A stretch of 39,210 nucleotides of DNA from a virus. The position numbers were made by a program, and so were the translations under genes. Every line of letters begins with the position of its first letter. Within the stretch, counting starts at the first letter, position 1. The stretch lies in IMG/VR virus record IMGVR_UViG_3300042520_000247, positions 1-39,210 of that record, one strand, 5' to 3'. Below, in pieces: positions 963 to 36,464 of the stretch. The notes beneath the pieces were generated by a model that did no database searches, had not been told where the DNA came from, and saw nothing but the letters and a program-made list of their open reading frames with translations.

Positions 963-991
963 ATTATATCACACTTTTCTTAGATTTGCTA
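963..991 (-). promoter_or_regulatory. Possible extended -10 promoter before the reductase
   Basis: On the minus strand TGATATAAT forms an extended -10 element (TATAAT at 963-968). The -35 position, TAGCAA at 986-991, is poor. It lies at the very end of the glycosyltransferase-like gene. Transcription would begin near 956, at or just inside the start of the 54-residue gene, so it would mainly serve the reductase. An AT-rich chance match is possible. Confidence 0.3.
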
Positions 992-1953
992 CGTTTTTTA
1001 CTAACTACTTGTGGCAGATAACTAACTGCCTTCTCTAAGCCAGTATCCCAGTCAGAGTAATTATCCCACCATACTGTAGTCATAGTGTCGTACCAGTAGG
1101 TTTTCTCAGCAACAGGATACCATCTCCAGCAGGCCATGCTCTCGTCACCTATTAGGTTCAGAGTCTTAACACCAACACTTGCAGCACAGTGGGCGATAGC
1201 AGAATCCACAGAGATAACGGCATCTAGTGTTTGGATTTTGTCTGCTGTATCAACCCACTTAAAACTATCTAAGAACCCTTCTCCAATCTGCAGAGATACA
1301 AAATCATACTCAGGATGTCTTAGCACAAACTTATCTACTACTTCTTTAGGAATCTGTTTTGCTATCATATTCCAAGACTTGTTATCAGTATTATAAAAGA
1401 TACCAACCAATGGCTTGCTGCGTTTAGGAGCCACTATCTCAGGGTTACGGTACAGACCCTCTGCACCAAACCACCGATCAGTGGGAACTGAAGGTAACAG
1501 ACCATGCTCCATCAGAAGATAAGGCATAGACATCATCTTTATCCTAAACACCGAAGGAGGACACTCGCTAGAGTTTTTACTGAATCCTGCCTTGGTATCC
1601 AGCCTACGCAGAAGTGGAATGATCTCTTCAGGATAGACACAGAACACATTGTTTGTAAGCTGATTAATCATAGGAATGAAGCGAGAGAACTGTAGCATAT
1701 CTCCCCAACCAGCCTCTGACCAAACTATTACATTACGTCCTTTGATGTTCTGTCCCGGCATCCAGACAGCAGCCTTATGAAAGTTATTCCTAACTCCGGG
1801 GAACTTAGCATTAGCATTCCAGAAGGCATCTGGTAAGGACCGAAGTTCATGCAGTTTAAACCCGTTTGCCCAGTCCCCTTCACGGATTAAGTTCTGCCCT
1901 TTCTTATAGTCCTTATCAGCACTAGCCCAGTTTATCTTTAGTGTTCCCGTCAT
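964..1953 (-). CDS. GT9-like (heptosyltransferase-type) glycosyltransferase
   Basis: The protein has 329 residues. Its N-terminal part has the pattern seen in TPR-linked glycosyltransferases: GDWANGF, then AGWGDMLQFSRFIPMI near residue 85-100. The C-terminal part carries LDAVISVDSAIAHCAASVG followed by LIGD and WRWYP. This matches the GT9/heptosyltransferase nucleotide-sugar domain, which usually reads LDLVISVDTAVAHLAG. GT9 enzymes transfer sugars to LPS core or other glycans; the acceptor here is unknown. The Lys- and Ser-rich tail (KKRSKSKKS) is unusual. I chose the ATG at 1953, the first ATG, which has GGTGG upstream; a TTG at 1968 is an alternative. It overlaps the DUF3310 gene by 32 bases and is not next to other surface-glycan genes, so its role (host surface, virion or DNA modification) is open. 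Confidence 0.75.
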   Translation of the reverse strand: MTGTLKINWASADKDYKKGQNLIREGDWANGFKLHELRSLPDAFWNANAKFPGVRNNFHKAAVWMPGQNIKGRNVIVWSEAGWGDMLQFSRFIPMINQLTNNVFCVYPEEIIPLLRRLDTKAGFSKNSSECPPSVFRIKMMSMPYLLMEHGLLPSVPTDRWFGAEGLYRNPEIVAPKRSKPLVGIFYNTDNKSWNMIAKQIPKEVVDKFVLRHPEYDFVSLQIGEGFLDSFKWVDTADKIQTLDAVISVDSAIAHCAASVGVKTLNLIGDESMACWRWYPVAEKTYWYDTMTTVWWDNYSDWDTGLEKAVSYLPQVVSKKRSKSKKSVI

Positions 1954-2293
1954 AATACTTACCACCAATCTTATCGTAGTTGTCTATCATAAACTCAAGG
2001 TAGTGCTTTGCCTTCTCAAGATCCTGCTTACCTGCTTTCTTGCGATGACGAGCCACATACTTGATTACATTGCAAGCCCAAGGATCTAAACCCCAGTCAA
2101 GGAACACGTCCCAAGGCTCGATGCTAGACTTGTAATGATCACCGCCAATCTGCTTAGACTTGATGTAATCACCCAATGTCCTAACGTCTACACTAGTAGC
2201 TCTATCAAATGCTTGGTCTACATTATGTAGATTGATTGGCTCAAGTTGTTGGACCCTGTACCAGTCTGAAGGAGTTGCGTTATCAATGCTCAT
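1922..2293 (-). CDS. DUF3310 (SaV-like) family protein
   Basis: The protein has 123 residues. The C-terminal half holds the family signature: QIGGDHYKSS, then WGLDPWACNVIKYVARHRKK, then KAKHYLEFMID. The DUF3310/SaV family is widespread in phages and usually sits among nucleotide-metabolism and replication genes. Its biochemical role is not established. The N-terminal 50 residues are less typical. It begins inside the end of the metallophosphoesterase gene (11-base overlap) and runs into the glycosyltransferase-like gene, so it is probably translationally coupled. Location is predicted to be cytoplasmic. Confidence 0.88.
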   Translation of the reverse strand: MSIDNATPSDWYRVQQLEPINLHNVDQAFDRATSVDVRTLGDYIKSKQIGGDHYKSSIEPWDVFLDWGLDPWACNVIKYVARHRKKAGKQDLEKAKHYLEFMIDNYDKIGGKYYDGNTKDKLG

Positions 2294-21700: not shown

Positions 21701-22075
21701 ATGGCAGCACCTAATATAGTAAACGTAACAACCATCACAGGCAAAACCAATGTGGTGGACTTAACTTCAACATCAGCAACGTCAGTTGTCAGCAACGCAT
21801 CATCCAGCGGCAAGGTCTTTAAGATCAACTCGCTGATCGTTGCCAACGTGGATGGCACAGCTAACGCTGACATCACGATCAACCTGTATTCAGCCGCTGC
21901 TCTTGGCGGCACGGCAACTCAGATTTGCTCGACTATCGCTGTGCCAGCGGATTCATCGCTGGTGGTGATTGACAAGACTTCTGGTATCTACCTTGAGGAA
22001 GATAAGTCAATCGGTGCAACGGCTGGTTCATCAAATGACCTTAAAGTAATCTGCTCCTACGAGGAAATCTCCTAA
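21701..22075 (+). CDS. 124-residue structural protein
   Basis: The sequence [20 protein letters not shown], then [20 protein letters not shown] and [20 protein letters not shown], matches a beta-sandwich protein type common in cyanophages and other marine phages beside fibre genes. It is Ser/Thr/Val-rich and without membrane segments. The role is probably as a virion decoration or fibre-associated protein, judged from position. GGAGGATAAA precedes the ATG and its stop overlaps the next start (TAATG). Confidence 0.78.
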
Positions 22076-24213
22076 TGCCCAAGTGGAATGGTGGCGTCAT
22101 TGGGGTCGCCAATAACCCCACTATCTCTTCTGCAAAGGGAATCTGGTCGCTGTCAGAGGCAACTAAAGCCATCCGTGCTGGATTGTGGCCGCCATCCAAT
22201 GCCGGTGCTGACCCGTACTTTGAGAACGTCACAATGCTGCTGTCTGCTAACGGAACAGACGGCACAAACAACAGCTCATTTTTAGACAGCTCTGGCAACG
22301 GACTTCACCCTAATCGCAACGGTAATACCACGCAAGGCACGTTCACACCGTTCTCTAAGCCTGATGGTCGGTGGGGTAACTACTTTGATGGCACAGGCGA
22401 TTTTCTTGATATAGGTTCTGGGTATCCATCGGCCCTCAACTTGGGGTCAAGCAATTTTACAATTGAATTCTTTGTTTATCCTACAAGCACATCAAAGCAA
22501 CTGGCTCTAGGAAATTTGAATGACGGCACGGGAACAAAAACATTTTTCCTAATAATGAATAGCACAGGCCGTTACGAATTTGGATTGGGTAGCAGCGCTT
22601 ATAATCTTGGAACAGGAACCGTATCAACAAACACATGGGTTCATGTTTGCGTAATGCGTTCTGGAAATAACATTCAACTTTTTGAAAATGGAGTTCAAAT
22701 TGGCTCCACTCAAACATTTAGTGGTAGCGTAACAAGCCAAGCAAATCAGATGCGAATTGGCGGGGCAATTGGTGGGCAATATCCGCTTTCAGGTTATGTT
22801 TCTAACGTGAGGATGTTAATTGGAACGGCGCTTTACAGCACTTCTGGATTTAGCGTTCCTACCGCACCTCTCACCGCAATCACCAACACATCTCTGCTGA
22901 CCTGCCAGAGCAACCGCTTTATCGACAACAGCACCAATGCCTTTGCAATCACTCGCAACGGTGATGTGTCCATCCAAACCTTCTCCCCATTCCCGACATT
23001 GACGGCCTACGCAAGTGGCACTAATGGCGGCTCTGGGTACTTTGATGTCACGGGTGATACTTTATCAGCAGGAAGTAACGCCGCATTTGCGCTTGGAACC
23101 GGAGACTTTACGGTAGAGACTTTTGCGTATTATGTTGCCCAATCAAATGTAGATGCTATTGCAGTAGCAAACTGGGACGGGGTTACTTGGGGTTCAAACA
23201 AATGGTCACTACATTTAGACCACACTACTGCTAGAGCCAAAGTTACATTCTGGTTTCACAATTACAGTTCAACCGTTCCTCTTTTGACTAGCACGAATAC
23301 TTTAACAATCGGTCAATGGCATCACGTTGCGGTAAGTAGAAGCGGAAACACATTTAGATTGTTTATAAATGGTGTTTTAGACGTAAGTGCTACTAACTCT
23401 ACTAGCCTAGACGGAGGAAATAACTCACCGATTTATGTTGGCGGTGGAGGCGGTGGCGCTGGGTCGCAATACTTTAACGGGTATTTGTCCTCTACAAGGC
23501 TTGTCAAAGGAACTGCTGTTTACACCGCAACCTTTACCACACCAACTGCTCCATTAACAGCAGTTAGCGGAACATCGCTACTACTTAACTTCACCAACGG
23601 CGGCATCGTTGACGCTGCCATGTCTAACGACTTGGAGACTGTTGGCGGCGCACAGATAAGCACCACGCAGAGCAAGTTTGGTGGTGCGTCTATGTATTTT
23701 GACGGCAACGGTGACTACCTTTTTGTTCCAAACACCAATTTGTCATTTAACTTTGGTACTGGTGACTTCACCATTGAGGGATGGGTTTACTTATCAGCCA
23801 CACCATCAACCGCAGGAACGATTATTGATGCACGCGCAAGCGACGCATTGACTGAGTACCATACCAGCGTAACTGCTTCAAACAAACTAGACTTTATTTA
23901 TTCGTCAAGTCGAGTTACATCGGCAACTTCAATTTCAAACACGACTTGGACTCACTTTGCAATCACTCGTTCATCTGGAACCATTCGGTTGTTCATCAAT
24001 GGGACTCTTGATGCAAATACTGCATCGTATTCAGGAACAGTTAATGCAGCCGCAACCCCTGCCATTGGTGGTGGAAGAGCCGGGCTCACATCAGCAATTA
24101 ATGGTTACTACTTCAACGGATACATAGACGACCTTCGCATCACCAAAGGATACGCTCGATACACCGCTAACTTCACCGCACCTGTCGGCCCATTCGTAGG
24201 ATTTGGAGACTAA
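22075..24213 (+). CDS. Large adhesin with three LamG/ConA-like lectin domains
   Basis: The protein has 712 residues. After a short anchor-like start ([20 protein letters not shown], then [17 protein letters not shown]) there are three related domains at about 50-290, 300-510 and 520-712. Each has a [27 protein letters not shown] strand, a [24 protein letters not shown] strand, a W-xH segment, an LFxNG motif and IGG/VGG with [24 protein letters not shown]. These are LamG_3-type sandwich folds that bind glycans. It is a likely receptor-binding protein. Internal duplication suggests recent expansion and possible recombination. Confidence 0.87.
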
Positions 24214-25636: not shown

Positions 25637-26293
25637 ATGGCTAGGAAAACTTACTTACAACTTGTTAATGATGTACTGATCCGCTTGCGTGAGCCAGAGG
25701 TCACATCAGTTACTGACAATACTTACTCAAAGCTTATTGGAAGGTACGTCCAAGATGCACAGAGACAGGTAGAAGATGCTTATAACTGGAATGCGCTGAC
25801 CAACACGCTTACTATGAACACTGTTGCTAACCTGTTTAACGGTGTATTAGTAGGCTCTGGCACACGGTTTAGGGTATTAAGCATTATTAATGACACAAGC
25901 GACTGGTTCTTAACCTATAAGTCCAGCACTGAGATGGATGATTTATTTTTAAATCAATCTACTCAGGTAGGTCCTCCTCTATACTATAACTTTAATGGTG
26001 TAGACACTGCTGGAGATACTCAAGTAGATTTGTATCCAATTCCAAATGGTGTTTATGTTATTCGGTTTAACATCATCCAGCCACAAGATCCACTACAGTT
26101 TGACTCAGATGAGATCTTAGTTCCTGCTGAGCCTGTTATCTTCTTAGCCTATGCTAAAGCTCTTGCAGAGCGTGGAGAAGATGGTGGTATGTCTAGCTCA
26201 GAAGCTTATGCATTATACCAGACTTCTTTAGCAGATCATATCTCGACAGAAGGCAATCGTTATCCTAACGAACTTAACTGGAATGCAGCCTAA
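25637..26293 (+). CDS. Head-tail adaptor (tail tubular protein A-like)
   Basis: The protein has 218 residues. MARKTYLQLVNDVLIRLREP and KLIGRYVQDAQRQVEDAYNW are typical of podophage adaptors that attach below the portal. A second part (FNGVDTAGDTQVDLYPIPNG, then VIRFNIIQPQDPLQ and YAKALAERGEDGGMSSSEAY) matches the C-terminal region of this family. It is directly followed by the nozzle gene (TAATG overlap), the same order as T7 gp11-gp12. Confidence 0.88.
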   Translation: MARKTYLQLVNDVLIRLREPEVTSVTDNTYSKLIGRYVQDAQRQVEDAYNWNALTNTLTMNTVANLFNGVLVGSGTRFRVLSIINDTSDWFLTYKSSTEMDDLFLNQSTQVGPPLYYNFNGVDTAGDTQVDLYPIPNGVYVIRFNIIQPQDPLQFDSDEILVPAEPVIFLAYAKALAERGEDGGMSSSEAYALYQTSLADHISTEGNRYPNELNWNAA

Positions 26294-28161
26294 TGGCCCA
26301 ACAACAACAAGCAGCTTCGATAGCGGCTCCGGGGTTCTTTGGACTAAACCTCCAAGAGTCCAGTATTGCTTTATCTAGTGGCTTTGCACTAGAGGCTTTT
26401 AACTGTATTATAGACAGGTCTGGTAGGATTGGTGCTCGTAGGGGCTGGGTTCCTGTCAATGCTGTTAATGCAGACTTAGGGTCTAACAATGTACAGTTTA
26501 TGTTTGAGATGACTGATGCAGCATCAAATCAGTTTATTAGCGCTGGTAACAATAAACTGTTTACTGGCACTACAACACTAACTCAGAAAACTGTTAGAAC
26601 ACAGGCAAACACTGCTGACGTAGCCTATACCATTACAGGCAACAACTGGCAAGGGGCAGCAATGCCTTTCGGTGACGGGGCTGATGCTATTTCCCATGCC
26701 TACTTTGTTCAAGCAGCGCATCCTGTCCTTGTTTATCATAACCTTCCAACTCCCGGAACAGGCGCTACCTTTTCTGTAACTACTGTAAGTAGTGGTGCTA
26801 TCACTGCAGTCTCTGTAACTGCTGCTGGCTCTGGCTACAATGTAGGTGACGTACTTACTATGGCAGGAGGCTCAGGCTCTGGTGCTAAACTAACTGTAGC
26901 AACCCTAAGTGGGACTGGTATAGCAACAGTAACTATTTCTACCCCCGGAACAGGATACACTGCTGGTAATTCCTTGACCAGCACAGTAACCACAATAGCC
27001 AATCCTCACTCACACTCTGGTTCCTTTGGCTTTCAACAGTTAGGCGATGTTGGCACATTACCAACAGGCTACTCTATAGCAGACTTTAAACCAAACTGTG
27101 CCTTAGCTGCTTATGGTCGTATCTGGATGGCAGACATTGCTGGTGACAGACAAACTGTATATTTTAGCAGACTCTTAGATGGCTCTGACTTCCAAGGCGG
27201 TGACTCAGGGTCTTTGTCGATTAATGCTATCTTTCCTAATAACGATCAGATTATAGGCTTAGCTGCTCATAATGGATTCTTGATTGTATTTGGTAGGAAC
27301 AACATAGCTATCTATGCTAATCCTGTTGATGTAACCCAGCTTGTTTTAGCAGACTATATTCCTAACGTAGGCTGTATCGCTAGGGACTCTATCCAGAACA
27401 CTGGTACAGATATTATCTTCTTGTCTGATTCTGGTGTGCGTAGTCTCCAGCGTGTGATTCAAGAGAAGTCTTTGCCTTTGCGAGACATCTCTAAGAATGT
27501 ACGGGATGATTTGATTACTAATGTTAGCTCTGAGTCAGCCTCTCAGATCAAGTCTATTTATTATGACAGGGATGCCTTCTATTTACTGTCCCTTCCCACA
27601 ACTAAGTATGTCTATTGTTTTGACATGAGAACACCGCTACAGGACGGGTCCGCTAGAACCACTATCTGGACAAACATTGAGCCTGCCTCTTTCTGTGTTA
27701 ATGCGTCTAAAGAGCTATTACTTGGCAAGGCTGGGTATATAGCCAAATACTTTGGTCACCTAGACAATACGGCTACCTATCGGTTTAAGTACTTTACTAA
27801 CTACTTTGATTTTGATAGCCCTACCAAGGAAAAGATCCTAAAGCAAATAGGAATGGTTCTCATTGGGGGATCTAACCAAGATATCGCTATCAAGTGGGGC
27901 TTTAATTATAACGAAAATTACTCTGCAGTAACGAAAAAGCTTGACACAACGGTTGCTTACGAGTATAATGATAGTACGCTTCCACAACTATCAGAGTACA
28001 ACATTGCTGAGTATTCTGATGGAATTGTACTGGACAAGTTTAAGGCTCATGTGGGCGGTAAAGGTCCAATTATGCAGGTAGGTTTAGAAGCAGAAATTAA
28101 TGGTAATCCGTTATCAATTCAGAGGATTGATATCTATATTAAACAAGGAAAAACAGTATGA
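26293..28161 (+). CDS. Tail nozzle protein (tail tubular protein B-like)
   Basis: The protein has 622 residues. [20 protein letters not shown] and [20 protein letters not shown] open it, typical of T7 gp12-like nozzles. Later segments ([46 protein letters not shown]) fit a beta-propeller. An extra domain of about 85 residues (152-237) contains two repeats, [14 protein letters not shown] and [13 protein letters not shown]. This looks like a decoration domain inserted in the propeller. The protein forms the lower tail tube through which DNA exits. A perfect promoter lies within the gene at 27941-27969. Confidence 0.88.
27941..27969 (+). promoter_or_regulatory. Intragenic sigma70 promoter in the nozzle gene
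   Basis: TTGACA (27941-27946) and TATAAT (27964-27969) are exact consensus hexamers 17 bases apart, inside coding sequence. It would drive the collar fibre, the cupin-SET gene and the internal virion proteins. It lacks the extended flanking sequence of the two earlier rightward promoters. Confidence 0.75.
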
Positions 28162-29525
28162 GTAATTATACAAAAGCAACTAACTTTGCCGCTAAAGACG
28201 CACTACCTCCAAACAATTCTGGTAAGATTATTAAAGGCACTGAGATTGACGTAGAGTTAACCGCAATTTCTTCTGCTGTTAATTCTAAAGCAGACGTAGC
28301 AAGTCCTACCTTTTCAGGTACGCCTACTGCACCTACGGCATCTACTGTTACAAACAGCACACAACTCGCTACTACAGCCTTTGTAAAAAATGTTATTACT
28401 GATGCTTTACCCACTGGCATGATTATGCTTTGGTCTGGTTCTCAGGCAACCATTCCTTCTGGATGGCTTCTGTGTGATGGTACTGGCGGTACTCCTGACT
28501 TGCGTGGTAGATTTATCATTGGTGCTGGTTCGCTTGCTGCAAGTGCTACAGGAACTGCTGGTGCAAAGGTAACTGGTTCTATTTCTGGTACTACGCTTAC
28601 AGTATCTAGCACGACTGGTGGATCAAACTTCGGAACTCTAGCTGTAAATGATACTCTTAGCCACGCCTCTATAGTTCAAGCAACTACAATTACAGGACTT
28701 GGTACTGGAACAGGAGGAACAGGGACTTACACCTTAACTTATACAGGCTCTACTTCTTCCTTTACTGGTTCTATTTCGGGAACTACACTGACTGTTACGG
28801 CAGTGTCTGCAGGAACTCTTATTACAGGTCAAGTATTAACAGGCGGCTCTGTTACTGCAAATACAACAATTACAGGTCAGCTTACTGGAATCGCTGGTGG
28901 TACTGGTACTTACACAGTAGACATTAGTCAGACCCTATCATCAACCAGTTTGACTGGTACGTTTACTTTAGCAAGTACTACTTTAACTATCAACTCTACA
29001 ATCCTAACAGTCTCGGCAGTAGCTTCTGGCACACTCTCTGTTGGGCAGTTCTTAACAGGAACTAATATTGATTTTGGTATAAGCATTTCTGCACTAGGGA
29101 CAGGTACAGGAGGCGCAGGAACATACACTCTAAGTTCTGGAGATTCTTTTATCAGTACCGCTATCTCAGCCTCTGCTGGAACAGTAACTGTAGGGGCTTC
29201 TGGTGGTTCTAAGGATGCAGTTGTAGTATCTCACACCCATACTGGCACTATTGGGCCAGACGGAGAACATACGCACCTTATTATTGCAGATACAACATTG
29301 TTTAGTGGATCAAGTCCGTTTGCTGGTGGGGCTCATTTAAGGCAAGGAGGTAGTAGTGGTGATTCTGCATATAGACTTCAGGGAAGTGGTACATCGCCAA
29401 CGGTTGGTTTGACATCAACATCGCCAACACATACGCATTCAGTTACTCTGGCTTCCACAGGTTCTTCAGCCACTAACGCTAACCTGCCACCGTACTATGC
29501 CCTTTGCTACATTATGAAAAGTTAA
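28158..29525 (+). CDS. Tail collar fibre protein
   Basis: The protein has 455 residues. The Collar domain is at about 83-124 ([20 protein letters not shown], then [18 protein letters not shown]). Residues 136-345 are a block of Gly/Thr/Ser-rich tandem beta repeats ([20 protein letters not shown] and similar). The C-terminus has HTHTG, HTHLI and THTHSV, three HxH motifs, and the standard ending [15 protein letters not shown]. HxH motifs bind iron in some fibre tips. The start overlaps the nozzle stop (ATGA). The protein probably contacts the host. Confidence 0.88.
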
Positions 29526-30400
29526 TGGATAAGTTTTCAGTAGTAAACAAACAACAAAATCTTCCTTCTTTACTAACTGAAGAAAAAATTCAAATAGTAG
29601 AAAAAGGGTTTTTACAACAAGAACAGGTTGAGTGTCCAGTGGTTCACAGGTTTGGTCCGGGTATTTATATTAGAGAAGTTACATTACCCGCTGGTTCTTT
29701 TTCAATTGGGCATAAACAAAAAACGGTACATTTAAATGTAATGTTAACAGGCAAAGTTACAATGGTACTAGAGAACGGGAGTCATAAAGAAGTAGTAGCT
29801 CCTCAGACATTTGTAGCGCAGCCCGGAAGAAAAATAGGATACATACATGAGACTGTAGTTTGGCAAAACATTTATGCTACAGATGAAACAGATATAGAAA
29901 AACTAGAAGAAATGTTTTTAGAAAAAAGCATGACTTTTAAAGAACACCAAGAGTCTCAAAAATTATTATTAACATTTGATTCAAGTCAAGATATAGAAGA
30001 TTATTTTAAAACAATAAAAGAATTTGGCTTCGATGAAAAAACAGTAAGGCAACAAACAGAAAATTTAGAAGATCAAATTCCTCTTCCTTTTGGTAACTAT
30101 AAGTTTACTATTGGAGATTCTAAAATAGAAGGGAAAGGAATTTTAGCTTGCGGTAATATTGAAGCAAACGAAGTAATAGGGCCAGCACGAATTAACAATA
30201 TGCGTACTGCTTTAGGTAGATATACAAACCATGCAAAAACTCCAAATGCAAAAATGGTTTTAAAAGAAAACGGAGATATAGACTTAGTCGCTATCAAGTT
30301 AATTAAAGGTTACAAAGGCGGTCAATTAGGAGAGGAAATAACTGTGAATTATCGTCAAGTATTAAGTTTATCGTTAGGAGAATTATTATGTCAGGAGTAG
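29525..30400 (+). CDS. Cupin-SET domain fusion protein
   Basis: The protein has 291 residues from the ATG at 29525 (TAATG overlap). Residues about 45-120 look like a cupin barrel (FSIGHKQKTVHLNVMLTGKV, then FVAQPGRKIGYIHET). Residues about 200-280 have SET-domain features: IEGKGILACGNIEANEVIG, GRYTNHAKTPNAKM (the N-H-x-PNA element) and GEEITVNY. SET domains methylate protein lysines using SAM. The target is unknown. The gene is strikingly A/T-rich (16 G/C of 60 bases in both 29941-30000 and 30001-30060), unlike its neighbours, so it looks recently acquired. Alternative: a degenerate SET fold with a structural role. Confidence 0.78.
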   Translation: MDKFSVVNKQQNLPSLLTEEKIQIVEKGFLQQEQVECPVVHRFGPGIYIREVTLPAGSFSIGHKQKTVHLNVMLTGKVTMVLENGSHKEVVAPQTFVAQPGRKIGYIHETVVWQNIYATDETDIEKLEEMFLEKSMTFKEHQESQKLLLTFDSSQDIEDYFKTIKEFGFDEKTVRQQTENLEDQIPLPFGNYKFTIGDSKIEGKGILACGNIEANEVIGPARINNMRTALGRYTNHAKTPNAKMVLKENGDIDLVAIKLIKGYKGGQLGEEITVNYRQVLSLSLGELLCQE

Positions 30401-31416
30401 CAACAGCCATTGCTGCCAGCGCAGTTGTTGGTTCTTATTCCGCTAAAAAAGCAGCCGAAAAATCTGCTAATGCTCAAAGAGATATTGCCAAGCTAGCTGC
30501 AGACGAAGCGAGATTTAGACCAGTAGGAATAACTTCTAGATTTGGCGCTTCTGAATTTGAGTATGATAAAAAGGGAAACCTAATCGGTGCTGGCTATGCT
30601 GCTTCGCCAGAGATTCAGGCACTTCAAGATAGGTTGTCTGCTTTATATGGAACAAGTCTTGGACAAGCTGAAACTGCTCAGGCTGCTAGTGCTCCTTTAG
30701 GCTATGCTGGTCAGAGTTTATTTGGACTTGGTGCTCAGTATCTAGCACAGTCACCAGAGCAAGCTAGACAGCAATATATTGCAGAACAGCAAGCACTTAT
30801 TAATCCTATTCGTCAACAAGAAGAACAGAGATTAGCCTCGTCTGTCTTTGGTCGTGGTCGTGCTGGTCTTAACGTAGGGGCGCAAGGACAACCTGAGTTA
30901 GCAACATTAGCTGGTGCAAGACGTACACAAGACTTACAGTTAGCTGCAGAAGCTGATCGAGCTGCACAACAGCGTATTGGCTTTGGTGCTGGTCTATTTG
31001 GCACAGGTGCTGGTTTGTTTGGAACTCAGTACGGATTACAGACTCAAGCATTGGCTCCTTTCCAGCAGCAGTTCGGTGTGTCTCAACTACTTGAGCAGGC
31101 AGCTATGCAACCTCTTGATATTAGTGCTCAACTTGGTGGACGTGCTGCAACGGCAGGTGCAAATGTTGGTCAGTCTTTATTAACTGGTGGACTAGGTGCT
31201 GCACAGACTCAACTACAAGGTTCGTTAGTTGGTCCTTCGTTGATGGCACAGAATGTTTCTGGCTTTGGTCAACAGTATTTACAGAACCAACAGCAACAGC
31301 AACTGTTTGATAGGTTAGCACAGAACCGTAACGTAGGTTATTATGGTTTTAATCCGTATAGTAATACTAATACATTTGCAATGCAAAGCCAAGCTGGTCA
31401 ACTTGGTACTTCTTAA
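30388..31416 (+). CDS. Internal virion protein (T7 gp14-like)
   Basis: The protein has 342 residues. It starts MSGVATAIAASAVVGSYSAK, with a hydrophobic helix near the N-terminus, and then DEARFRPVGITSRFGASEF, which is characteristic of small ejection proteins of podophages. The rest is Gln/Ala/Gly-rich with repeated FG and LG motifs. In T7-like phages such a protein is ejected with DNA and helps form the channel across the outer membrane. AGGAG precedes the start, which overlaps the cupin-SET gene by 13 bases. Confidence 0.83.
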   Translation: MSGVATAIAASAVVGSYSAKKAAEKSANAQRDIAKLAADEARFRPVGITSRFGASEFEYDKKGNLIGAGYAASPEIQALQDRLSALYGTSLGQAETAQAASAPLGYAGQSLFGLGAQYLAQSPEQARQQYIAEQQALINPIRQQEEQRLASSVFGRGRAGLNVGAQGQPELATLAGARRTQDLQLAAEADRAAQQRIGFGAGLFGTGAGLFGTQYGLQTQALAPFQQQFGVSQLLEQAAMQPLDISAQLGGRAATAGANVGQSLLTGGLGAAQTQLQGSLVGPSLMAQNVSGFGQQYLQNQQQQQLFDRLAQNRNVGYYGFNPYSNTNTFAMQSQAGQLGTS

Positions 31417-32359: not shown

Positions 32360-33805
32360 ATGGCCTATAATGTACTTGCTGCTAAAAGAGCTGGTGCTAC
32401 AGATGAACAGATTGCTCGTATTATCGCTCAAGAGCGTGGGCAAAACTATGATGATTTAGTAGCTGCAGGCGCTACCCCTAATCAGATTATTAAGATAGGT
32501 AACGAACAAGGCTTCTCCTTTGGAGAGGCTTTCATGGCTGGTGCTCGTGCTGAGGCTTTGTCAGAGATTGATGGAGTTAAACAAATCTTTGGTGGAGAGC
32601 TTAGCGAAGAGCAGGTAGCACAAGAGAACCTAGCTAGGCAAGCTTCTGAAGAACGTGGCTTTGCTACTGGCTTAGGTCAGTTTGTTGGTGGTTTAATTAA
32701 CCCATCTACACTACTGCCAGGATCATTCCTCCTCAAAGGTGCTAAAGGTGTTGCACTAGCTGGTGCTGCTGGGGGAGGTATCGCTGGTGCTGTACGTCCC
32801 ATTTACACTGAAGAAGACCTAGGTAGGCTAGGCGGTGCTGCTGTAGGAGCTACAGTAGGAGGCGCACTAGGCTTTGGCCTGGGTAAACTTATTGATCAGT
32901 TTGGTTCAAAAGTAGCTGACGATATTGTCAACACTGGTCAGTTATCTCCTGATGGTAAAGAGATTACTACCCCACACTTTAAGCTTAAGTTAGATGAAAA
33001 TGGTAACTGGTCTAGAGAAGAAGTTTCAGTAACAGATGATTTACTTAAGGCAAGGCAAGTAGCGGAAGAGAACAGAGCCTCAACTATTGATGGTCTAGAA
33101 CCAAAGGTAGAAAGTCCTGAAGTAGTTGCTGCCAAAACTGCAGAGAAAGAAGATCTTCCTGTTCTTCCACAATATCTTTCAGGAGCTTCTCCAAGGTTTG
33201 CTAAGTCTGTTGTTGACTTTGAAACCGATATAGATAAGGCTTTGTACATAGTTGGTAACCCTACTACCAAGTCTGCTAGGCACGATGACTACATGGCCTT
33301 CTTGCAGCAGGCTTTAAAGACCGATCAAGGCACTATTTCCAAACTTGCTGCTGAGGTTCGTAAGGAAGTTGTACAGGCTGGTAAACTGGTCCAGGGCGAA
33401 GCAGGCTTGTCTGGTATAGGTCAGGTAGATAAGTTTAAGTTTAACTTATCCAGAACAGTAGATAATATTTTAAATCCTGCTGATAAATATCTTGACGATT
33501 TCTCTAAAAGAGTGTATAATTTAGGAGCTGGTCTAAGAACTGGTCCTAAAGGATATCCAGTCTTGTCCTTTAAACAAGCTGAGGAAGCTGTGTCAATTAT
33601 GCAGCGAACTGATCCAACCTTTGTCAAGAGTATGCCAGAGGCTTCACGGAATGTAGCAGCATATCGTAGATACCTAGATGATATGAAATCTTTAAACGGG
33701 CGTAACTATAAGGCCAAGTCCTTTGAAGATTTTATTAATAAAGGGATTGACGCAGACGATCAAATTAAAATGATTGAAGCTGGTTACTTTGATGGGTGTA
33801 GATAA
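32360..33805 (+). CDS. Internal virion protein, module 1
   Basis: The protein has 481 residues. It begins MAYNVLAAKRAGATDEQIAR, and a Gly/Ala-rich hydrophobic stretch at about 135-180 (GVALAGAAGGGIAGAV, GGAAVGATVGGALGFGLG) could insert into membrane. The rest is helical and charged. The gene ends GYFDGCR and overlaps the next start (TAATG). With the next two genes it spans about 4.1 kb, like the large internal core proteins of T7-like phages, which may be one polypeptide in relatives. Its role is probably DNA ejection. Confidence 0.72.
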   Translation: MAYNVLAAKRAGATDEQIARIIAQERGQNYDDLVAAGATPNQIIKIGNEQGFSFGEAFMAGARAEALSEIDGVKQIFGGELSEEQVAQENLARQASEERGFATGLGQFVGGLINPSTLLPGSFLLKGAKGVALAGAAGGGIAGAVRPIYTEEDLGRLGGAAVGATVGGALGFGLGKLIDQFGSKVADDIVNTGQLSPDGKEITTPHFKLKLDENGNWSREEVSVTDDLLKARQVAEENRASTIDGLEPKVESPEVVAAKTAEKEDLPVLPQYLSGASPRFAKSVVDFETDIDKALYIVGNPTTKSARHDDYMAFLQQALKTDQGTISKLAAEVRKEVVQAGKLVQGEAGLSGIGQVDKFKFNLSRTVDNILNPADKYLDDFSKRVYNLGAGLRTGPKGYPVLSFKQAEEAVSIMQRTDPTFVKSMPEASRNVAAYRRYLDDMKSLNGRNYKAKSFEDFINKGIDADDQIKMIEAGYFDGCR

Positions 33806-34434
33806 TGTCTAGATGCGACTTACCATTATATAAAAATGTACTTCCTAAAGTACGAGTAACTAATATCACATCTAACCAGATGGATAAGTTACTTAAGATG
33901 GATGAGAGTAAAAAGAAATTCTTCATGAACGAGCGTGTATACGCCAATGAAGATGAAAAGTCTTTGATGGAAGGTATTGCCTATGCGTTTGGTAGGCGTG
34001 CGGAAAGTAAGACTAACCTGGGTATTCAGATGGATACCTTTACCAACGAAACCTACCAGAAGGCTCTTAACTCTGTAAAAAACTCAGAGTTTAACAGCCC
34101 AGATGCCCTGGCTGTGGGTCAGGATATCCTGCTACGGGTGGAGAAGGGTACTCCTCTGTCAAATGAACAACGAGCGCTGGCCCTACCAGCCTTCTTAAAG
34201 CGCTTAGAGGGTCTTCCTCTCCTTACCCGTCAGTATGAAAAAGCGTATGCCTCTGGGGACGAGGACATGACAGCTAGATTTGGAGCTGAGATAGCACAGT
34301 CTATCGCTATGTTTGCTGGTATTAGGGGCGATCAGAATGCCTTGTCCGTAGGGTTTAATACCTATAAGTATATGTACAGACAGATCCAAGCTAACGCTAA
34401 GATAACAAAACTATTTCAAAACGGTGAGTGCTAA
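33805..34434 (+). CDS. Internal virion protein, module 2
   Basis: The protein has 209 residues, MSRCDLPLYKNVLPKVRVTN onward, wholly helical, ending ITKLFQNGEC. It has no recognised family. It starts on the overlapping TAATG of the preceding gene and ends on the TAATG of the next, so three genes are chained. Length and order suggest it is one piece of a larger core protein. Separate translation by stop-restart is the simplest reading; a recent split by point mutation is the alternative. Confidence 0.65.
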   Translation: MSRCDLPLYKNVLPKVRVTNITSNQMDKLLKMDESKKKFFMNERVYANEDEKSLMEGIAYAFGRRAESKTNLGIQMDTFTNETYQKALNSVKNSEFNSPDALAVGQDILLRVEKGTPLSNEQRALALPAFLKRLEGLPLLTRQYEKAYASGDEDMTARFGAEIAQSIAMFAGIRGDQNALSVGFNTYKYMYRQIQANAKITKLFQNGEC

Positions 34435-36464
34435 TGGCTGGTATTACTAAAAGATGTGCTGATTTCTTATTAAACTGGGCCAAGTCTGCTGATGATATTA
34501 TGACTAACCCAGTACTGTCTCCTGGTGAGGCAGGCGCTGCATTGTCTAAGAGCGCAGAAGCTGTCTTAAAAGAGCCTTCGGTCAGAGAGAGGATTGGCTC
34601 CTACATTCGTAATAGCTACCTATCTGCCTTGTCTACCCAGGTGGTCAACCTAGTGTCCCAAACTGCCCAGCTAGCTCTGGCCCCAGTAGTCAGGGCTGCA
34701 GCAGGGAGGCCCGGAGAAGCCATAGCCATGCTCAGGGGTGTCTCTGAAGGATTTACAGAGTCGTTCCCCAGATTTATGGCAGGGTTGTCTAAGCGTACCG
34801 AAGACTTTGATGGCAACCAACATAAGACATTTGACATAGTTAAGAACAAATACGGGGATGCTATCCTGACATATCCCCAGCGGCTGACTGGGGCATTGGA
34901 CCAGGCCTTCTCTGCTGTGCTGGAGCGCATGGAGTATCGTGCCATGCTGCACAGGATCGAGAGTAAGTTTCCTGATGAGTACTTTGCCAAGCAAGGAACA
35001 ACTCGTGAGGCCTTTGTCAAGGAACTTGATGACATTGCCATGAAGCAAAAGGACGGTAATGCAGCTATGCTTCGCTACCTAGAGGGTAGGGACCCAGCCC
35101 TTCGCTACCAGCTTGAGAACTTTGCAGCTTTTAATACCTTCCGAACCCCACTAGGAAAGTCGTTGATTGACCGTGGTGGACAGCTAGTGGCAGAGGCTAA
35201 GAACATAGCGCCTGAGTTAAACCTTGTGGTTCCGTTTCTTCGTACTGGTATTAACATTGCTAAAGAGGCTGGTGGATACCTACCAGGGGCAGGGATGCTT
35301 CGTGTTCGTCAGGCTAAGTTAGACATTAAAGATATTAACGAACAACTAGCCAGTGTCTCTACTAAAATCCAAGCGGCAGAGGATAGGCTTTCTACTGCTG
35401 TGTTTCCTGCCCAGATTGAAAAGGCCCAGGCAAGGCTTGATAAGCTGATTAAGCGTAGGGCCATGCTGGAAGGCGAGAGAACCTTCAAGGAAGAAAAGAT
35501 TCCTGAGTTCTATGCTCAACAGGTTCTTGGTGCTGGGTTCATGCTTGCTACCTATGGCATGGTGCAGCAGGGTTTAGTTACTGGTCACTACTCTACAGAC
35601 CCTGCAACTAGAACTGCACAGATGGCTACTGGTGTTCCTCCTATGTCCTTTAAGATGGGAGATAGATGGGTGTCTTATGATCGTATCGAACCTTTCTCTA
35701 CTGTTATGGGTTTGGTAGTTGATACTATGAGTGCGTTTAAAGAAGGCAGGCTTAAAGGTGAGAGTCCTAGTATAGGTAATATATTTAAAATAGTAGGCCA
35801 GAACTTCTTAGACAAGACCTTCACTGAGGGCCTAGGTAAAGCAATGCTTGCTATTCAAGAACCAGATAGATATCTGGAATCCTATCTTGTCTCTCTAACT
35901 AACCCTGTAGTGCCTGCTATCGTTAATCAAATAGCAAGGTTAGAAGACCCAATAAGAAGAGAAATTAAAGACCCCGACACTGCTAACTGGGTTTTGAATA
36001 ACTTAAAGAGCAGGCTACCTGGACTAAGGGAGACTCTACCTGAGCAGGTTAACTTACTTGGTCAGCCCCAGCAGATGGGCAGAGGCTCTGTTCTTACTGG
36101 TATTCAGGTAACCCCTGTTGAGCGTGAGGCAACTCAGGCTATATTTGATAACCCTTACTTACGCATGGAGCGCATGGATAGGAAAGTTGGTGGTTTAGAG
36201 TTAACACCAGAACAATACGCTGACATGGAGAACCGTGCTGGGGACCAGCTCAATCGTGTTGCTGGTAACTTAATTAACAACCCAGGGTTTCTAGCACTCT
36301 CTCGCCCATTACAAGCAAGACTTGTTAAAGGTATTACAGGAGAGATTAGGAAGGCAGAGCGTATGCGTACTTTGTCTACTCTGGTCCAAGACCCTGAGAA
36401 GCGTTCAGAGTTTGTTCTCAATCTCCTCACCAAGCGAGGGCTTCAGCAAGACATCGAAGAATGA
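34434..36464 (+). CDS. Large internal virion protein with LPD38-like region
   Basis: I start at the ATG at 34434 (TAATG); a GTG at 34428 is an alternative. The protein has 676 residues. It contains long helices, a coiled coil around residues 290-350 (QLASVSTKIQAAEDRLSTAV, then KAQARLDKLIKRRAML). A hydrophobic segment and FKMGDRWVSYDRIEPFSTVM follow near 375-450, similar to the LPD38 domain of large polyvalent phage proteins. The role is probably ejection with DNA. No lytic transglycosylase motif is evident here. Confidence 0.75.
   Translation: MAGITKRCADFLLNWAKSADDIMTNPVLSPGEAGAALSKSAEAVLKEPSVRERIGSYIRNSYLSALSTQVVNLVSQTAQLALAPVVRAAAGRPGEAIAMLRGVSEGFTESFPRFMAGLSKRTEDFDGNQHKTFDIVKNKYGDAILTYPQRLTGALDQAFSAVLERMEYRAMLHRIESKFPDEYFAKQGTTREAFVKELDDIAMKQKDGNAAMLRYLEGRDPALRYQLENFAAFNTFRTPLGKSLIDRGGQLVAEAKNIAPELNLVVPFLRTGINIAKEAGGYLPGAGMLRVRQAKLDIKDINEQLASVSTKIQAAEDRLSTAVFPAQIEKAQARLDKLIKRRAMLEGERTFKEEKIPEFYAQQVLGAGFMLATYGMVQQGLVTGHYSTDPATRTAQMATGVPPMSFKMGDRWVSYDRIEPFSTVMGLVVDTMSAFKEGRLKGESPSIGNIFKIVGQNFLDKTFTEGLGKAMLAIQEPDRYLESYLVSLTNPVVPAIVNQIARLEDPIRREIKDPDTANWVLNNLKSRLPGLRETLPEQVNLLGQPQQMGRGSVLTGIQVTPVEREATQAIFDNPYLRMERMDRKVGGLELTPEQYADMENRAGDQLNRVAGNLINNPGFLALSRPLQARLVKGITGEIRKAERMRTLSTLVQDPEKRSEFVLNLLTKRGLQQDIEE

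What the first reader, a model, noticed from the sequence alone, without database searches (positions are those of the whole stretch)
29525..30400. Cupin fused to a SET-type methyltransferase in the tail-gene block
The C-terminal part has IEGKGILA, YTNH-xx-TPNA and GEEITVNY, the spaced motifs of a SET domain. The N-terminal part looks like a cupin. SET enzymes methylate lysines in proteins. The gene is far more A/T-rich than its neighbours (27% G/C in the two lines counted). It sits between the collar fibre and ejection proteins, so it could methylate fibre or ejected proteins, or be carried into the host.
Basis: partly seen in the sequence, partly recalled or inferred. Interest (0 to 1): 0.85.

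Follow-up and report, generated by a model that had tools for sequence, protein, structure and literature searches.

The report
Phage cupin–SET lysine-methyltransferase fusion protein
A gene in the tail/DNA-injection block of a short-tailed phage encodes a predicted protein-lysine methyltransferase (SET domain) fused to a cupin domain; hundreds of uncultured phages carry it, nearly always next to a DNA-injection protein where that can be read, which points to phages methylating proteins involved in virion assembly or genome delivery.

Summary
Window 29525-30400 (+, 291 aa) encodes a cupin followed by a SET domain. A profile of 61 relatives hits solved SET enzymes in motif register (MLL1 3.6e-11, EZH2 5e-8, PBCV-1 vSET 6e-7). 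An AlphaFold model (pLDDT 92.6) matches cupins and vSET/EZH2. The SET motif residues are essentially invariant, and both halves evolve under strong constraint (dN/dS about 0.05). The fusion is not a curiosity: at least 400 IMG/VR contigs carry relatives. Both domain orders occur, and one contig has separate adjacent genes. Where readable, the next gene is nearly always a small DNA-ejection-type protein starting Met-Ser. The cupin without SET is widespread in podophages in that same slot, named 'short tail fiber protein' by annotators. In BPP-1 and Acinetobacter phages a GNAT acetyltransferase precedes it; in T7 the slot holds gp13, which I find to be GNAT-fold. Most likely this is a late-expressed lysine methyltransferase targeted by the cupin to ejection/tail-assembly proteins. 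Substrate, virion presence and activity are untested; no conserved lysine in the neighbouring ejection protein was found. The low G+C is real here but weak in relatives.

The parts
29525..30400 (+). cupin-SET fusion gene, 291 aa (stop codon included)
   Evidence: ORF; phrog_34170 full length E 2.4e-90, unknown function; AF2 pLDDT 92.6, pTM 0.87
29633..29878 (+). cupin (double-stranded beta-helix) core, residues about 37-118
   Evidence: Foldseek PDB: TM1459, 2fqp, 3lag and other cupins; phrog_12032 'short tail fiber protein' E 5e-32 over residues 17-144
29894..30070 (+). helical pre-SET stretch (residues about 124-182); its DY..L...G....V....EN..D part travels with the SET domain when the domain order is reversed
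   Evidence: AF2 helices 124-131, 136-149, 154-166, 171-178; same stretch at the N-terminus of SET-first proteins L116, L128, L153, L155
30086..30358 (+). SET domain, residues 188-278
   Evidence: PF00856; profile hits MLL1, EZH2, vSET; Foldseek 3kma vSET TMt 0.64, EZH2
30125..30139 (+). GxG motif I-E-G-K-G, residues 201-205
   Evidence: G205 61/61; G203 59/61
30218..30247 (+). R-Y-x-N-H-xxxx-N motif, residues 232-241 (SAM-binding / pseudoknot motif of SET enzymes)
   Evidence: R232, N235, H236, N241 61/61
30332..30352 (+). E-E-I-T-V-N-Y motif, residues 270-276; Y276 at the position of the catalytic Tyr, V274 at the 'F/Y switch' position
   Evidence: E271 61/61; Y276 in all 60 rows that reach it; 274 is V/I in 57 of 61
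30388..31416 (+). downstream small DNA-ejection-type protein, starts MSGVATA..., overlaps the SET gene by 13 bases
   Evidence: 86 of 116 downstream neighbours homologous, nearly all starting MS; P26218 and L134 counterparts are phrog_598 'DNA ejection'; profile of these hits P26218 gp29 at 5e-22; the window protein itself has no PHROG match
28158..29525 (+). upstream collar-type tail fibre protein; its stop codon shares one base with the ATG of the fusion gene
   Evidence: PF07484 Collar E 1.6e-5; phrog_1800 tail collar fiber
26293..28161 (+). head-closure / tail-hub-like structural protein (context)
   Evidence: phrog_578 head closure Hc3 E 3e-13 (also phrog_5107, annotated amidase, E 2.9e-27)
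32360..36464 (+). internal virion protein genes (32360-33805 and 34428-36464, with 33805-34434 between; context)
   Evidence: phrog_342 E 1.7e-6, phrog_6651 E 3.8e-28

Best explanation
Shown by comparison: the gene encodes a cupin fused to a SET domain with intact motifs, in the structural gene block, overlapping the gene for a small DNA-ejection-type protein. Inferred: the protein is a SAM-dependent protein-lysine methyltransferase made late in infection. The cupin is the older, resident part of this slot (many podophages have it alone there) and acts as the targeting or assembly module that brings the SET domain to the ejection/tail-hub proteins. The SET domain methylates lysines on one or more of them before or during their packaging. 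The likely benefit is tuning of the folding, membrane insertion, stability or host-protease sensitivity of ejected proteins. T7 (gp13, GNAT fold) and BPP-1/Acinetobacter phages (GNAT plus cupin) appear to use an acetyltransferase-type protein in the same slot. Val/Ile at the F/Y-switch position suggests, weakly, that di- or trimethylation is possible. Likelihood: SET and cupin folds about 0.97; catalytically active on protein lysine about 0.75; substrate among virion/ejection proteins about 0.45.
For: Fold and motifs. Purifying selection on both halves (median dN/dS 0.049 and 0.061 over 169 pairs of relatives). Recurrent linkage of the two domains: 149 cupin-SET and 4 SET-cupin ORFs in the first set, further SET-first proteins, a truncated SET-first ORF L163 and separate adjacent SET and cupin genes in L134; about 8 changes of SET presence and 3 of domain order on the cupin tree. 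Coupling to the ejection gene: the downstream protein has Ser at position 2 in 108 of 111 distinct SET loci, spacing mostly -13, -4 or +1; 12 of 12 cupin-only loci read start MS/MT. Downstream genes are 'DNA ejection' families or P22_gp7. Slot analogy: GNAT directly upstream of the cupin in BPP-1 and 20 of 25 Acinetobacter-type loci; T7 gp13 lies between gp12 and gp14 and its model matches GNAT enzymes including RimI; PMC6775973 already links a GNAT next to internal virion proteins to T7 gp13.
Against: No activity, mass-spectrometry or virion-proteomics evidence. The ejection proteins of SET-carrying phages have no conserved lysine in the aligned N-terminal 150 residues, three have no lysine in their first 200, and their lysine content is not raised relative to cupin-only phages. 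GNAT adjacency is not general: among 37 upstream neighbours in a wider cupin-seeded sample none was GNAT by Pfam (the one hit is best explained by the zth2-2 GNAT that I added as a control). The start codon of the downstream gene was chosen with a preference for ATG followed by Ser, which inflates the Met-Ser count somewhat, without that preference, lists the same starts. Gene order alone does not prove interaction. At least one SET of this family (L168) sits near head genes with no cupin found nearby.
Confidence: 0.5

Rival explanations
1. Injected effector: the cupin-SET protein is packaged with the ejection proteins and delivered into the host, where it methylates host proteins (ribosome, RNA polymerase, nucleoid or defence proteins).
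For: Sits within the ejection-protein gene block in nearly all loci; some phages inject enzymes (own knowledge, e.g. T4 Alt).
Against: The cupin-only relatives occupy the slot without any enzyme; T7 gp13, the positional analogue, has been suggested to act in virion morphogenesis (PMC6775973). Packaging was not tested here.
Confidence: 0.2
2. The cupin is itself an enzyme (a metal-dependent oxygenase or sugar-active cupin) and the two domains form an opposing or sequential pair, for example methylation and demethylation/hydroxylation of the same residue.
For: Some metal-ligand-like residues are common (H69 in 57 of 61; position 65 mostly Q or H); the fold matches Mn/Fe cupins.
Against: The motif residues are not fixed: 63 is H in 43 of 61, 65 is Q/H/Y, 109 varies, and no solved catalytic cupin is matched by sequence better than about E 0.1.
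Confidence: 0.12
3. Receptor-binding or fibre role: the cupin is a short tail fibre/adhesin as annotators say, and the SET domain is a structural add-on that has lost catalysis.
For: PHROG names 'short tail fiber protein' and 'tail fiber adhesin'.
Against: Those names have no experiment that I could find behind them (PMC8703784 says of phiAP1 ORF43 'no experimental validation was performed'); SET catalytic residues are retained and the SET half is under strong purifying selection.
Confidence: 0.1
4. Accidental moron: a recently captured gene unrelated in function to the tail block, as the low G+C might suggest.
For: G+C 32.5% against 44% in this phage.
Against: Hundreds of relatives, the same slot in those read, average G+C only 2 points below flanks, tight overlap with the ejection gene, strong constraint.
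Confidence: 0.03

Closest known systems
PBCV-1 vSET (A612L, histone H3K27 methyltransferase of a chlorella virus)
   Same: Minimal viral SET domain; fold match (3kma, TMt 0.64, 23% identity) and profile match E 6e-7; same catalytic motifs
   Different: vSET stands alone and acts on eukaryotic histones; this one is fused to a cupin in a bacterial virus's ejection-gene block
MLL1/KMT2 and EZH2 SET domains
   Same: Best sequence-profile matches (3.6e-11, 5e-8), motifs in register
   Different: No eukaryotic pre-SET/post-SET modules seen; the phage has no histones to act on; V/I instead of F/Y at the switch position
phrog_34170 / Rhodoferax phage P26218 gp30, phages PH1, zth2-2, ctfPj964, ct1fd225
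   Same: Full-length fusion homologues, 30-51% identity, same slot
   Different: Annotated hypothetical, unannotated, or by automated fold label ('pbcV-1 histone H3-lys 27 methyltransferase structure'); no function proposed
Podophage cupin family PHA00672 / phrog_12032 (BPP-1 Bbp23, VvAW1, VPMS1, Vibrio phages)
   Same: The cupin half (E 5e-32); same place before the ejection gene in most
   Different: No SET; some have a GNAT gene next door instead
T7 gp13 (PF11090) and cobavirus GNAT pc40
   Same: Enzyme-fold protein next to the internal virion / ejection protein genes; T7 gp13 directly upstream of gp14
   Different: GNAT acetyltransferase fold, not SET; no cupin

Membership tests
SET-domain protein lysine methyltransferases (PF00856) | SET fold | tested here: met
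   AF2 pLDDT 92.6; Foldseek to vSET and EZH2
SET-domain protein lysine methyltransferases (PF00856) | GxG, N-H-x-x-x-P-N and E-E-x-x-x-Y motifs | tested here: met
   Invariant or nearly so in 61 relatives; aligned to MLL1 in register
SET-domain protein lysine methyltransferases (PF00856) | Curated Pfam score | tested here: met
   24 bits in six-frame search against cut-off 22.4; 22.2 in hmmscan of the ATG-started protein, so borderline for the single sequence
SET-domain protein lysine methyltransferases (PF00856) | Motif residues converge on one SAM/lysine pocket (pseudoknot) | tested here: inconclusive
   Implied by the fold match; coordinates of the model could not be inspected with these tools
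SET-domain protein lysine methyltransferases (PF00856) | SAM-dependent methyl transfer to lysine | not testable with these tools
   Needs biochemistry
Cupin superfamily | Double-stranded beta-helix fold | tested here: met
   Top Foldseek hits are cupins
Cupin superfamily | Conserved metal-binding His/Glu set | tested here: inconclusive
   H69 mostly conserved, H63/Q65/E109 not fixed
Podophage 'short tail fiber' cupin family (phrog_12032 / PHA00672) | Sequence homology to the family | tested here: met
   E 5e-32 over residues 17-144; 61 phage records by tblastn, all but 8 over the cupin half only
Podophage 'short tail fiber' cupin family (phrog_12032 / PHA00672) | Being a tail fibre or adhesin in the virion | not testable with these tools
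   Annotation only; no proteomic evidence found in the papers read

The most novel reading that the evidence does not exclude
Short-tailed phages carry a modular 'ejection-protein modification' slot immediately upstream of the gp14/gp7-type ejection protein, filled in different lineages by an acetyltransferase fold (T7 gp13, BPP-1 Bbp24 with cupin) or by a SET lysine methyltransferase with the same cupin; covalent modification of ejected proteins is a previously unrecognised step of podophage virion maturation.
Probability: 0.3. Interest if true: 0.85.

Novelty: new variant of a known kind. Interest (0 to 1): 0.64.

Why it matters
Lysine methylation by SET enzymes is mostly known from eukaryotes and a few bacterial and giant-virus cases. 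A large phage family with an intact SET domain tied to the ejection-gene block would make virion protein methylation testable in a cultured phage (P26218, PH1). It may also help explain T7 gp13, a protein encoded next to the internal core proteins that I find to have an acetyltransferase fold.

Tried and rejected
Chance motif match: rejected by invariance in 61 relatives and by profile hits. General AT-rich moron: rejected for the family. A single conserved target lysine in the adjacent ejection protein: looked for, not found. General GNAT-cupin pairing: not supported outside the BPP-1 and Acinetobacter-type lineages. Single-sequence PDB search gave nothing useful; the T7 gp13 sequence profile did not reach a GNAT (single sequence E 0.39), only the structure model did. 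Too diverse a cupin alignment could not seed a scan. Paper searches found no functional study of a phage SET fusion; Bbp23 is not named in the papers listed. The SET tree has too few columns to settle where the orders swapped. The C-terminal 'LCQ' motif shared by several family members can be explained by the overlap with the ATG-TCx start of the next gene (inference).

Full report
What is there. The ORF at 29525-30400 (+) begins with ATG at 29525 and encodes 291 residues. Its end overlaps the start of the next gene by 13 bases, and its ATG shares one base with the stop of the upstream collar-type fibre gene. The window is a 39.2 kb virus record classed by IMG/VR, of a podovirus type: family-A DNA polymerase and primase/helicase on the minus strand; terminase, portal, scaffold, capsid, fibres and internal virion proteins on the plus strand.

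Fold. The single sequence is borderline for Pfam SET (22.2 against 22.4 bits in hmmscan; 24 bits in the six-frame search). With 61 diverse relatives as a profile the SET assignment is clear: MLL1 3.6e-11, EZH2 5e-8, PBCV-1 vSET 6.4e-7, with the GxG, R-Y/F-x-N-H..PN and E-E-x-T-x-D/N-Y blocks in register. AlphaFold2 on that alignment gives pLDDT 92.6 and pTM 0.87. Foldseek against the PDB returns cupins such as TM1459 for the N-terminal half, and vSET (TMt 0.64) and EZH2 for the C-terminal half.

Conservation. G205, R232, N235, H236, N241 and E271 are invariant in 61 sequences, Y276 in all 60 rows that reach it. The F/Y-switch position is Val or Ile in 57. Over 169 pairs of relatives the median dN/dS is 0.049 for the N-terminal half and 0.061 for the C-terminal half. 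An intact enzyme is the straightforward reading.

Distribution. tblastn finds the SET half in eight records of the annotated phage collection, which represent the phages P26218, ctfPj964-type, zth2-2, ct1fd225 and PH1. Scans of IMG/VR find 417 and at least 441 contigs. The cupin alone occurs in about 50 further phage records, mostly Vibrio and other podophages, several named 'short tail fiber protein' or 'tail fiber adhesin'. I found no experiment behind those names; PMC8703784 says of a similar annotation that 'no experimental validation was performed'.

Architecture shuffling. Among 153 fused ORFs from the first IMG/VR scans, 149 are cupin-SET and 4 SET-cupin. A cupin-seeded scan found more of both (10 SET-fused ORFs in 80 loci). 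One truncated ORF (L163) is SET-first, and L134 has a separate SET gene overlapping a separate cupin gene. On the cupin tree SET presence changes about eight times and domain order three times, with the warning that few columns leave many forks unresolved. Repeated joining of two domains in both orders and as neighbours argues for a functional link.

Link to the ejection protein. For non-redundant SET loci the next gene starts within a few bases of the stop (-13, -4 or +1 in 90 of 111) and encodes a protein beginning Met-Ser (108 of 111) with a hydrophobic, Ala-rich start (starts were chosen with a preference for ATG-Ser, but without that preference shows the same). 86 of 116 are detectably homologous to the window's downstream protein; homologues in P26218, Vibrio phage 234P9 and L134 are phrog_598 'DNA ejection', that of PH1 is phrog_21132 'DNA ejection', and that of 234P9 also matches P22_gp7. 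Cupin-only phages show the same kind of neighbour in 12 of 12 cases read, including BPP-1 Bbp22 by its start, though Bbp22 has no ejection-family match. The slot is thus cupin (with or without SET), then ejection protein.

A wider pattern. In BPP-1 and in 20 of 25 Acinetobacter-type loci a GNAT gene lies directly upstream of the cupin. In T7, gene 13 lies between gene 12 (tail protein) and gene 14. Its sequence profile does not reach a GNAT, but its model (pLDDT 93) matches GNAT enzymes, RimI among them. A cobavirus paper had already proposed that the GNAT next to internal virion proteins could correspond to T7 gp13 (PMC6775973). I propose, at modest confidence, that this slot holds protein-modifying enzymes for the ejection machinery. 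Against generality: in a wider cupin-only sample no GNAT was adjacent.

Target. I looked for a conserved lysine in the aligned N-terminal part of the downstream ejection proteins and found none; three lack lysine in their first 200 residues, and lysine content is not higher than in cupin-only phages. The target may vary, lie elsewhere in the virion or be a host protein. This is the weakest step.

G+C. The gene is 32.5% G+C against 44.1% for the window; codon position 2 is 0.298 against 0.41-0.63 in neighbours, so amino-acid content explains part of it. In relatives the average deficit is two points. I do not read it as recent capture.

Verdict. Observation confirmed; interpretation partly supported. 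New domain architecture of known folds with wide distribution, unreported function as far as the held literature shows, and a cheap decisive test (methyl-lysine mass spectrometry on virions of cultured phages).

Noticed in passing
L212:1408-1824 (T7 gene 13): AlphaFold model of T7 gp13 (Pfam: 'probable scaffold protein Gp13') matches acetyltransferase/GNAT-type structures throughout the 50 best PDB hits listed, including RimI, although its sequence profile matches none.
   Followed up: yes
L168:5258-5635: A lone SET gene of the same family upstream of a capsid-type gene, with no cupin detected nearby; a different virion context.
   Followed up: partly
L006:9096-9581 (phage zth2-2): A GNAT acetyltransferase gene lies shortly downstream of the cupin-SET fusion, so this phage has both enzymes in one block.
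   Followed up: partly
window 22075-24213: 712-aa protein with three laminin-G/ConA-like lectin repeats (PF13385 E 2.6e-58) in the structural block; probable glycan-binding appendage.
   Followed up: no
window 967-1968 (-): Glycosyltransferase family 9 (heptosyltransferase-like) gene at the end of the early gene block; could modify LPS or phage parts.
   Followed up: no
window 32360-33805 / 33805-34434: Internal virion protein ORF ends where the next ORF begins, possibly a split gene or a frameshift.
   Followed up: no
window about 12500: GC skew changes sign where coding switches from minus-strand early genes to plus-strand late genes.
   Followed up: no
L204-L208, L211: Genome-collection contigs labelled Methylophaga, Lentisphaera, Bacillota, Anaerolineae and others carry the fusion; most are MAG contigs that may be misbinned phage, so hosts are not assigned.
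   Followed up: partly
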